DNA of 64,000 nt from assembly GCF_900129755.1 (NCBI RefSeq), contig NZ_FQWT01000001.1, forward strand, positions 1,302,001-1,366,000, in the 5' to 3' direction. Source of the stretch: Chryseobacterium oranimense (GTDB lineage Bacteria; Bacteroidota; Bacteroidia; Flavobacteriales; Weeksellaceae). Each line of letters starts with the position of its first letter. The stretch's first letter is position 1. A model generated the notes under the pieces. It made no database searches and was not told where the DNA came from. It worked only from the letters and a program-made list of their open reading frames with translations. The position numbers and the translations under genes were made by a program. Of this stretch, positions 4,056 through 5,578 are shown in pieces.

Positions 4056-4082
4056 ATAAGATATCCTAGCAAAGTATCTTAT
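4056..4082. promoter_or_regulatory. Inverted repeat upstream of the tRNA-linked gene
   Basis: ATAAGATA (4056-4063) and TATCTTAT (4075-4082) are perfect inverted 8-mers with an 11-base spacer. They lie 8 bases before a TAACTTTA -7-like box (4090-4097) that precedes the ATG at 4103. The position and size fit an operator for a dimeric regulator. No regulator gene lies next to it. Confidence 0.55.
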
Positions 4083-4102
4083 AATTGCATAACTTTAGTT
4101 TT

Positions 4103-5413
4103 ATGACAACCATTGAACAGCTCTATAAAACCTTAGATGAGCGCAGACGTCCGGAAGATGTTGCGGAGATGATTGTTGAATTAATGAAAAATGATCTGAA
4201 CCGTCATGAACTTTCTGTTTTGGAAAAAGCTGCTCAGGGCTCATTGAAAAGAAGTCTGTATGGGTATACTTCAATGCTCGAAACTTTCGGAACTGCAGTT
4301 GGAGCCGAAAAACAGATCAAAAAAGCAATTGAAATCTTTAAAATCAGTCAAAGTGAAACTTCCAATTATCACTATATTGAAAATATTGAAACCTTTTTAA
4401 CAGAAACATCTCCTTTGATCCATAAATCAATAGGAAAGAATGATTTTCGTAGCGACAGGCTTAATAAAATTCAGAGAAAAGAAGCAGGACTGGATCTTTC
4501 CAAAAGGAGCTACAATAAAAAATGGCGTCTTCTGAAGCGTATTGAAAAAAGACTATACAAGTGTATCCAGGAGTCCAAAAAGATTGAGTTCCAGAAAATA
4601 GCAAAACATGGATTGGCACACACCATCAGTCCTGAAGATTTTAATGCAGATCTTAATACCGCCTGTTTTATTGCCTATTTCAATGCACGGAGTAATGTAA
4701 GAAGTACATTTACCAATCAAAGTCAGGAAAGGCCGTTTGATGAAATCTGTGAAATGTTATTCAACAGATGCAAAGGAAATGCTGACAAAACCAACTGGCA
4801 GGCTGTTTCATATATCTATACCAATGAAGAAGCTTTGCACTATCTTGCTGACGAACAGAAAGGAAGACTATTGGGAAAATGGAGTAAAATCCTGCAGGAA
4901 ATTGCTGAATTCCTGGAAAAATTGTGGACAGATAATGACATCAACAGGAAAACTATGGCTGTAAAAAAAGGCAATGATTCCACTACATGGAACAATACGG
5001 CCGGAGCCTGGAATAAAGCAAGAGACAACTGGATGAATTTGATCTATGCACTAGGCATGGAGTATATTCTCGATGATATCTGCTTCGGAAAAGTGATGCG
5101 ACTGATGGCGGCCGACGTCATTGCATGGCATTTATCCAGTGGTGGAAAACTCGACCCTAACACAGAAGTCTGGAATATACTACCTTTGCCCTGGGAGGTT
5201 TTTCAGGAAAAACAATTCTGCAATAAAAAAATGATTATACAGGCTTGCAGAAAAGCCGGTATTGATCCTGAAAAATCAGGCTGGATTGCTCCGAAAACTC
5301 AACAGGTAAGCCAGTTTAAACCAACGCCTGAACTGGTACATGGAGTGACCGTTTCAAACCCTTTTCTTGCATCTGTCTTAAGAAAAAACAAATATTTTTC
5401 AGGCAAAATCTGA
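4103..5413 (+). CDS. Unknown protein upstream of two tRNA-like genes
   Basis: About 436 residues from ATG 4103 (a TTG 18 bases earlier is in frame but overlaps the -7 box). I do not recognise the family. The sequence is mostly helical and charged, with a basic middle (RSYNKKWRLLKRIEKRLYKC near residues 135-160). A conserved-looking C-terminal block contains LMAADVIAWHLSSGGKLDP, then WNILPLPWEVF and AGIDPEKSGW. There is no signal peptide or membrane segment, so it should be cytoplasmic. It is preceded by an 8-11-8 inverted repeat and followed after 15 bases by two tRNA-like genes with no promoter visible between. The linkage suggests a role with tRNA or RNA, but that is inference. Confidence 0.8.
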   Translation: MTTIEQLYKTLDERRRPEDVAEMIVELMKNDLNRHELSVLEKAAQGSLKRSLYGYTSMLETFGTAVGAEKQIKKAIEIFKISQSETSNYHYIENIETFLTETSPLIHKSIGKNDFRSDRLNKIQRKEAGLDLSKRSYNKKWRLLKRIEKRLYKCIQESKKIEFQKIAKHGLAHTISPEDFNADLNTACFIAYFNARSNVRSTFTNQSQERPFDEICEMLFNRCKGNADKTNWQAVSYIYTNEEALHYLADEQKGRLLGKWSKILQEIAEFLEKLWTDNDINRKTMAVKKGNDSTTWNNTAGAWNKARDNWMNLIYALGMEYILDDICFGKVMRLMAADVIAWHLSSGGKLDPNTEVWNILPLPWEVFQEKQFCNKKMIIQACRKAGIDPEKSGWIAPKTQQVSQFKPTPELVHGVTVSNPFLASVLRKNKYFSGKI

Positions 5414-5428
5414 AAACAATAAAATAAC

Positions 5429-5503
5429 GGATAGGTTAATTCAGTGGTAGAATTCCCGGCTCTTCATCCGGGTTGACGCAGGTTCGAGCCCTGCACCTAT
5501 CCA
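5429..5503 (+). tRNA. tRNA-like gene A with an 8-nt anticodon loop
   Basis: The cloverleaf is complete. An 8-bp acceptor GGATAGGT (5429-5436) pairs with ACCTATCC (5495-5502), followed by A5503. The D stem is ATTC/GAAT with loop AGTGGTA. The anticodon stem is CCCGG (5455-5459)/CCGGG (5468-5472), the variable region TTGAC, and the T arm GCAGG-TTCGAGC-CCTGC. The anticodon loop is CTCTTCAT (5460-5467), eight bases rather than seven. Reading from U33 gives CUU (Lys); aligning from the 3' side gives UUC (Glu). The extra acceptor pair resembles the G-1:C73 pair of tRNA-His. CCA is not encoded in full. It may be a working non-standard tRNA, a tRNA mimic or a decaying copy. Confidence 0.75.
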
Positions 5504-5506
5504 ACT

Positions 5507-5578
5507 TCTGATATAGCTCAGTGGCAGAGCACCCGGCTCTGGACCGGGAGGACACAGGTTCGAGCCCTGTTATCAGAG
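5507..5578 (+). tRNA. tRNA-like gene B, anticodon CUG (Gln)
   Basis: A canonical 72-nt cloverleaf: acceptor TCTGATA (5507-5513)/TATCAGA (5571-5577), D arm GCTC-AGTGGCA-GAGC, anticodon arm CCCGG-CTCTGGA-CCGGG, variable AGGAC, T arm ACAGG-TTCGAGC-CCTGT and discriminator G5578. The anticodon at 5539-5541 is CTG, read as Gln. The U1-A72 pair and G73 agree with glutamine identity in Escherichia coli. G at position 37 is unusual for tRNA-Gln. CCA is not encoded. It starts 3 bases after gene A and shares its anticodon stem, T loop and most of its T stem, so the two look like diverged duplicates expressed together. Confidence 0.8.

What the first reader, a model, noticed from the sequence alone, without database searches (positions are those of the whole stretch)
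4056..5578. Regulated unknown gene carrying two tRNA-like genes in its 3' end
An unrecognised 436-residue protein is preceded by a perfect 8-11-8 inverted repeat. Fifteen bases after its stop come two well-folded, mutually similar tRNA-like genes that are themselves 3 bases apart. No promoter is seen between, so the RNAs are probably cut from the mRNA of the protein. Most tRNA genes are not placed behind an operator-controlled accessory gene. The unit could be a tRNA-repair, decoy or translation-reprogramming system. The function is inference; the arrangement is in the sequence.
Basis: partly seen in the sequence, partly recalled or inferred. Interest (0 to 1): 0.78.

Follow-up and report, generated by a model that had tools for sequence, protein, structure and literature searches.

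The report
Protein paired with dedicated tRNA-like RNAs
A previously undescribed protein travels through bacteria, plasmids and viral DNA with its own transfer-RNA look-alikes, which keep the shape of a tRNA but not the parts that choose a codon or an amino acid, so they probably act as partners of the protein and not as ordinary tRNAs.

Summary
The 436-residue protein matches no family in Pfam, NCBIfam, PADLOC or PHROGs and no PDB entry convincingly; AlphaFold gives a confident, mostly helical model. Relatives down to 28% identity occur in Bacteroidota, an Acidobacteria MAG, Actinomycetota plasmids and large viral contigs. In 50 of 51 loci examined, at least one tRNA-like gene of one special type lies beside the gene. 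In 296 genomes of the host family the RNA motif occurs in 23: the 22 with an intact protein plus one with an interrupted protein gene.

These RNAs keep a tRNA body with covarying stems and a GG-CUC...CC core at the anticodon. Loop length (6-14), loop sequence after CUC, acceptor stem and base 73 drift, which argues against decoding and against one fixed synthetase. Among 69 host tRNAs only four initiator-type tRNA-Met genes share the core.

Best reading: a two-part ribonucleoprotein module whose RNAs mimic the initiator-tRNA anticodon arm and either restrain the protein or sit in the ribosomal P site. The module is well shown; the mechanism is inferred. The "operator" is not conserved.

The parts
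4103..5413 (+). Gene of the partner protein, 436 aa, basic (pI about 9), mostly helical in the model, no known family
   Evidence: translation; no hits; model; pI
5430..5501 (+). tRNA-like RNA 1, anticodon loop of 8 (CTCTTCAT), base 73 at 5502
   Evidence: covariance model 90.4 bits (the sequence is in the model's training set)
5458..5469 (+). Core GG-CTC-(TTCAT)-CC of RNA 1
5507..5577 (+). tRNA-like RNA 2, anticodon loop of 7 (CTCTGGA), base 73 at 5578
   Evidence: covariance model 87.2 bits (also in the training set)
5535..5545 (+). Core GG-CTC-(TGGA)-CC of RNA 2
4056..4082 (.). 8-11-8 inverted repeat upstream of the gene; weak, not conserved, probably not part of the system

Best explanation
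This is a mobile two-part module: one protein and usually two (one to four) dedicated tRNA-like RNAs, probably made from the same transcript. SHOWN: obligate linkage across phyla, plasmids and viral contigs; a preserved tRNA body; a constant GG-CUC...CC anticodon core; drifting codon-reading positions, loop length, acceptor sequence and base 73; joint loss in three genomes. INFERRED: the protein binds its RNAs by the elbow and the GG-CUC...CC arm; the RNAs do not decode and are not charged by a fixed synthetase; they mimic the anticodon arm of initiator tRNA, the only host tRNA found with the same core. The likeliest working is that the protein acts on, or with, initiator tRNA or the ribosomal P site, and that its tRNA-likes either restrain it as decoy antitoxins or carry it to the P site, so that the module controls translation initiation, perhaps in conflicts between mobile elements and hosts.
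For: Linkage: 50 of 51 loci examined have the signature RNA beside the gene; 46 by ARAGORN and 4 more (L031, L038 hybrid, L069, L085) by sequence and covariance model. In the opposite direction, a scan of viral contigs for the RNA pattern gave 11 loci: 8 hold the protein and the other 3 are one repeated tRNA-Met. Co-occurrence in 296 genomes. Structure: 99.6% of cells paired and all 7 acceptor pairs show changes on both sides; no shuffle of 500 reaches the observed pairing or covariation score. Signature without selection for it: 58 of 58 ARAGORN genes beside cellular or plasmid copies, 25 of 32 beside viral copies; the other 7 have ordinary anticodon arms. Drift: 84 RNAs with loops 6:1, 7:16, 8:55, 9:11, 14:1; base 37 pyrimidine in 20 of 84 against 3 of 109 ordinary tRNAs; base 73 in 80 RNAs C29 A20 T18 G13. 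In 14 Chryseobacterium copies of RNA 2 the body is nearly invariant while the loop and base 73 vary. Initiator likeness: of 69 host tRNAs called by ARAGORN, 4 share G30 G31 C32 U33 C34, all tRNA-Met with a GGG/CCC stem, which I take for initiators; 0 of 65 others. Joint transcript: overlaps in 13 of 38. Joint loss: three genomes with N-terminal remnants (G191, G163, G228) lack the motif.
Against: The third G-C pair of initiator tRNA (29-41) is not conserved: it is C-G, U-G or U-A in 73 of 73. A CAU anticodon is rare, and base 1 pairs with base 72 in 71 of 73. The initiator-like core may be read by the protein alone, with no link to initiation. There is no evidence of toxicity, ribosome binding or expression. 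C. indologenes J31 (L038) keeps the protein with only one hybrid RNA whose acceptor is mispaired (4 of 7 pairs), which is awkward for an essential antitoxin. G221 keeps both RNAs without an intact protein. Loop positions are not fully random: base 38 is never G, the base after CUC is mostly U, and 12 of 20 distinct 8-nt loops match an ordinary anticodon plus base 37 (8.2 expected, p 0.012), so some mimicry of ordinary anticodons is possible.
Confidence: 0.4

Rival explanations
1. Recoding: the RNAs are true tRNAs with enlarged loops that read NNG, NNNG or NNNNG words (+1 or +2 frameshift suppressors), and the protein helps to charge, modify or deliver them.
For: U33, purine 37 in 64 of 84, tertiary-fold positions kept and 55 of 84 loops of 8 nt, as in frameshift-suppressor tRNAs; C34 constant.
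Against: Anticodons differ between close species; loops reach 14 nt; base 37 is a pyrimidine in 20 of 84; base 73 and the acceptor drift, and C73 (29 of 80) does not fit most synthetases (recalled knowledge); no aaRS-like Pfam match.
Confidence: 0.2
2. Dedicated substrate: the protein is an RNA-modifying or RNA-cutting enzyme that acts at C32-U33-C34 of its own RNAs, and the product is the active agent.
For: The constant part of the RNA is the elbow plus the 5' half of the anticodon loop; the protein is mostly basic with invariant R, D, K, H, W residues.
Against: No enzyme fold or motif recognised; why the 3' half of the loop may vary in length is unexplained.
Confidence: 0.2
3. Decoys or spare tRNAs against anticodon nucleases, as proposed for phage tRNAs with altered anticodon loops (van den Berg 2023, PMC10264068; abstract seen, a term search found none of four terms).
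For: Some copies lie among phage tRNA genes and on plasmids; loops often resemble Glu, Gln and Lys anticodons, weakly significant.
Against: Here the link to a partner protein is obligate; only the 5' part of the loop is fixed; the 30 genome-contig loci (up to 5 kb on each side) show no other tRNA genes in ARAGORN.
Confidence: 0.12
4. Chance linkage or ordinary housekeeping tRNA genes beside an accessory gene.
For: Both RNAs pass ordinary tRNA detectors.
Against: 50 of 51 loci linked, reciprocal RNA search, joint loss, 0 of 273 genomes with the motif alone.
Confidence: 0.01

Closest known systems
Initiator tRNA (tRNA-fMet)
   Same: G30-C40, G31-C39 and C32-U33-C34; only tRNA of the host that shares this core
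   Different: 29-41 is not G-C, anticodon almost never CAU, base 1 pairs with 72, loop length 6-14, tied to a protein gene
tmRNA with SmpB (recalled)
   Same: tRNA-shaped RNA with a dedicated protein partner
   Different: no tmRNA called by ARAGORN in these loci; no SmpB Pfam match
Rsr (TROVE) with tRNA-like YrlA RNA and RtcB (recalled)
   Same: RNA partner of tRNA-like shape encoded with a helical protein
   Different: no TROVE match among 36 members; no recurrent RNA-repair neighbour
PylRS/tRNA-Pyl type orthogonal pairs (recalled)
   Same: a protein and its own tRNA inherited together, also horizontally
   Different: no synthetase domain found; anticodon, acceptor and base 73 all variable
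Phage tRNAs that evade anticodon nucleases (PMC10264068, abstract)
   Same: phage location, altered anticodon loops
   Different: here one RNA family with a fixed core and an obligate protein, also on chromosomes
Giant-virus proteins A0A3G4ZSE3 (Edafosvirus) and A0A5K0U9D9 (Yasminevirus)
   Same: similar predicted fold (Foldseek E 1.1e-14 and 2.4e-12, TMq 0.67 and 0.68, rmsd 10.5 and 10.9)
   Different: 15-18% identity, larger (579 and 551 aa), uncharacterised; their RNA neighbours were not examined

Membership tests
Initiator tRNA | three consecutive G-C pairs 29-41, 30-40, 31-39 (PMC4611024, passages seen) | tested here: not met
   30-40 and 31-39 are G-C in 73 of 73 (required by the search), 29-41 is C-G 58, U-G 14, U-A 1
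Initiator tRNA | CAU anticodon | tested here: not met
   CAU-type loops are a small minority (one 7-nt and one 9-nt of 84)
Initiator tRNA | C32-U33-C34 with G30 G31 as in the host's initiator-type tRNA-Met | tested here: met
   among ARAGORN genes not selected for it, 58 of 58 beside cellular or plasmid copies and 25 of 32 beside viral copies
Ordinary elongator tRNA | stable anticodon and conserved base 73 for a synthetase | tested here: not met
Ordinary elongator tRNA | cloverleaf with tertiary positions | tested here: met
Natural frameshift-suppressor tRNA | 8-nt anticodon loop | tested here: inconclusive
   55 of 84 have 8; the rest have 6, 7, 9 or 14
TROVE/Rsr ribonucleoprotein | TROVE domain | tested here: not met
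   no TROVE match up to E 1 among 36 members scanned
RtcB RNA-repair operon | RtcB beside the gene | tested here: not met
   in the window's genome RtcB is on C10 and C13, the window on C7; other genomes only through the neighbour scan, whose list shows 25 of 70 families
Orthogonal aaRS/tRNA pair | aminoacyl-tRNA synthetase domain | tested here: not met
   no such Pfam match among 36 members; PDB fold comparison was not decisive
Toxin-antitoxin with RNA antitoxin | toxicity of the protein relieved by the RNA | not testable with these tools
   needs expression
Known anti-phage defence protein | match to PADLOC models | tested here: not met
   (window protein only)

The most novel reading that the evidence does not exclude
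A new class of ribonucleoprotein in which tRNA-shaped RNAs carrying a P-site (initiator-like) anticodon arm, with codon-reading and charging parts released from selection, are delivered or held by a novel helical protein family shared by bacteria, plasmids, large phages and giant viruses, and switch translation initiation on or off or start it at non-AUG words.
Probability: 0.22. Interest if true: 0.95.

Novelty: categorically new. Interest (0 to 1): 0.85.

Why it matters
A protein family without any annotation found here has its own family of tRNA-like RNAs, kept together across phyla, plasmids and large viral contigs. ARAGORN calls most of these RNAs undetermined or ordinary tRNAs, so the system is easily overlooked. 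If the initiator-like core means what it seems to, this would be a new way in which mobile elements act on translation initiation. If not, it is still a new protein/tRNA-like pair whose RNA needs neither a fixed anticodon nor a fixed identity base, which asks directly what else a tRNA body is used for. Both parts are small and can be tested in E. coli K-12.

Tried and rejected
Operator control: the inverted repeat is within ordinary chance (6% of shuffles, 3% of random window segments) and absent in 14 of 15 relatives. Known family: none in Pfam for 36 members (scattered weak matches only, best E 0.0027, one member), NCBIfam or PADLOC (both window protein only), PHROGs (best E 0.02 in 16 members) or PDB sequences (best E 0.69). 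Foldseek against PDB gave nothing under E 0.001, and the second look by VIA-align gave best Z 6.0, in the range of common helical arrangements; a known fold is not excluded. Conserved neighbours: 114 of the 175 neighbouring open frames listed for 24 loci were scanned; no Pfam family in more than 2 of 114, PADLOC at most 3, PHROGs at most 2. GGCUC pairing with GAGCC of the T arm: considered; the T-arm letters change (e.g. L029, L056) while GGCUC stays. Mimicry of ordinary anticodons: only weak support (p 0.012 for anticodon plus base 37, p 0.31 for five letters). Viral copies: a scan with the window protein alone found none, and INPHARED phage records gave no tblastn hit for two queries, so the viral copies rest on IMG/VR contigs found with alignments. 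PHROG matches were seen for neighbours of L067, L071 and L072, but 6 of the 10 neighbour proteins scanned had none. Rarity: in a sample of 395 genomes of the phylum only 2 matched, the window's own included. Literature: searches listed no report of this pair; listings only, apart from the two papers opened. The library holds open-licence papers only, so this does not prove that it is unpublished.

Rows dropped before counts: repeat fetches of one place (L062, L076, L078-L080, L082, L083 and the G-genome copies L001-L022) were not counted among the 51 loci; L063, a further genome's copy, and L077, a fifth plasmid, were not counted either but also carry the RNAs. The phage initiator-type tRNA at L086:37, the hybrid RNA of L038 and the truncated second RNA of L059 were left out of the loop statistics; four RNAs found by eye or ARAGORN were added. 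L073 and L075 come from two contigs but read alike. The regular expression used requires GG-CTC...CC, so the constancy of that core in those lists is by selection; one search is the unselected check. An earlier version of that check missed 18 genes through a parsing fault and is replaced. The 60 RNAs in the covariance model match it by construction.

Full report
What is there. The window lies in a 4.6-Mb genome whose nearest named relatives at this gene are Chryseobacterium. The gene at 4103-5413 encodes 436 residues. No family matched it in Pfam, NCBIfam, PADLOC or PHROGs. Two tRNA-like genes follow at 5430-5501 and 5507-5577. The upstream inverted repeat is real but not conserved and not rare by chance.

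The link is obligate. Of 296 genomes of the family, 27 gave a protein match: 22 full length, four N-terminal remnants and one weak partial match, G091. All 22 have one or two tRNA-like genes directly behind the gene. The RNA motif alone, sought in the same 296 genomes, appears in those 22 and in one more, G221, and in none of the other 273 (Fisher p 2e-32). In G221 the protein gene is interrupted after codon 39 by other genes; by eye, only its last codons remain in front of the RNAs and the acceptor stem of the second RNA shows a mispair. The other three genomes with short N-terminal remnants (G191, G163, G228) have lost the motif.

It is widespread, patchy and mobile. The scan of genome contigs gave 30 loci: Chryseobacterium, Kordia, Tenacibaculum, Aquimarina, Sphingobacterium, Paraflavitalea, Niastella, Dysgonomonas and others, plus an Acidobacteria MAG; 24 of the 30 have two tRNA-like genes by ARAGORN. 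In a sample of 395 genomes of the phylum only 2 matched, the window's own included. Seven plasmids carry it; five were opened as loci (L028-L031, L077) and all five have the RNA. Two scans with alignments found 16 distinct viral contigs, up to 436 kb, after a scan with the single protein had found none. Near-identical copies in Prevotella and Dysgonomonas, and the grouping of the Hymenobacter plasmid with the Acidobacteria copy, point to horizontal transfer. Of 51 loci examined (window, L028-L061, L064-L075, L081, L084-L086), 46 have a signature RNA called by ARAGORN. Four more have one by sequence or covariance model: L031 with a 14-nt loop, the L038 hybrid, L069 and the divergent L085. L061, which matches only residues 156-414, has none. 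In the opposite direction, 8 of 11 viral loci found by the RNA pattern hold the protein, and the other 3 are one repeated tRNA-Met.

Probably one transcript. Of 44 loci measured, 38 have RNAs downstream. In 13 of these the first RNA gene overlaps the coding end or stop codon, by 1 to 21 bases (for example L048, L058, L064-L066); in 24 it starts within 77 bases after it, and in L054 after 218. The second RNA follows after 3-10 bases in most pairs and after 18-65 in L053, L054, L068 and L071. In five viral contigs measured the RNAs lie upstream instead (L069, L070, L072, L074, L081), and L068 has them on both sides. In the window one sigma-70-like match (9 of 12) ends at 5425, just before RNA 1; the region as a whole has 4 such matches where 4.7 are expected, so this is no evidence either way.

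What the RNAs conserve. On 60 RNAs (59 distinct), 99.6% of paired cells are standard pairs and all seven acceptor pairs show changes on both sides. No shuffle of 500 reaches the pairing percentage, the number of double-change cells or the covariation score, while 17 of 500 reach the number of pairs with a double change. D-loop GG and the T-loop are kept. The core GG-CUC...CC is present in 58 of 58 ARAGORN genes beside cellular or plasmid copies and in 25 of 32 beside viral copies; the other 7 have ordinary anticodon arms. With the covariance model most members score 66-94 bits, ordinary host tRNAs at most 62.7 and ordinary tRNAs in the viral loci at most 66.9 (L074:10695). The score alone therefore does not separate all: L069 (66.4), L084, the second RNA of L086, L073 and L075, L031 and L085 fall within the range of ordinary tRNAs and rest on core and position.

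What they do not conserve. In 84 RNAs the loop is 6 (1), 7 (16), 8 (55), 9 (11) or 14 (1) long. Base 37 is a pyrimidine in 20 of 84, against 3 of 109 ordinary tRNAs of the host and of the viral loci. Base 73, scored in 80, is C 29, A 20, T 18, G 13. In 14 Chryseobacterium copies of the second RNA the body hardly changes while the 3' part of the loop and base 73 change freely. Anticodon, base 73 and acceptor are where codons and synthetases are read (established knowledge), so neither reading appears to be under strong selection. Against full freedom: base 38 is never G in 84, and some loops resemble ordinary anticodons.

The initiator clue. Among 69 host tRNAs called by ARAGORN only four combine G30 G31 with C32 U33 C34; all are tRNA-Met with a GGG/CCC stem, which I take for initiators. 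In initiator tRNA three G-C pairs mark the P-site tRNA, and pairs 29-41 and 30-40 touch 16S G1338 and A1339 (PMC4611024, passages seen). The tRNA-likes keep 30-40 and 31-39 but not 29-41, so they are not initiator tRNAs; they share part of that surface. Either the partner protein recognises this arm, or the ribosome does.

The protein. The second AlphaFold model has pLDDT 89.8 and pTM 0.88, mostly helical. No PDB match is convincing. Two uncharacterised proteins of giant viruses resemble the fold (TMq 0.67-0.68, rmsd 10.5-10.9). Of 38 members 36 have a pI of 8 or more. Residues invariant in 36 members include R200, D213, D292, S293, W296, N297, R307, K330, R333, D338, H343 and W364, which would suit an enzyme or a precise RNA-binding site.

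Judgement. The existence of a dedicated protein/tRNA-like RNA module is well supported (about 0.95). That the RNAs are not ordinary decoding tRNAs is likely (about 0.75). That the module acts through initiator tRNA or the P site is my preferred mechanism, with modest confidence (0.4); recoding and dedicated-substrate readings remain open.

Noticed in passing
L132 (G000:C10:24500-26800); tRNA at G000:C10:24760-24867, minus strand: A second RtcB gene (475 aa) in the same genome is followed by a tRNA-like gene of 108 nt with extra bases in the anticodon arm; by eye it looks like a tRNA with an intron-like insert beside an RNA ligase. Its single-strand fold is not clearly better than shuffles (z -0.81).
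   Followed up: partly
L101 (G000:C15:109600-112400): An array of 16 diverse tRNA genes in about 2.7 kb, like a phage or mobile-element array, in the window's genome.
   Followed up: no
L100 (Miltoncostaea oceani plasmid, 815 kb): The plasmid copy lies among RNA-processing genes as annotated: two RNA ligases, Thg1, two peptidyl-tRNA hydrolases, ThrRS and GluRS.
   Followed up: no
L131 (G221:C1:611600-616700): The interior of the protein gene is replaced by other genes in the opposite direction, while both tRNA-like genes remain.
   Followed up: partly
BFVD A0A3G4ZSE3 and A0A5K0U9D9: Giant-virus proteins resemble the fold; whether GGCUC-type RNAs accompany them is unknown.
   Followed up: no
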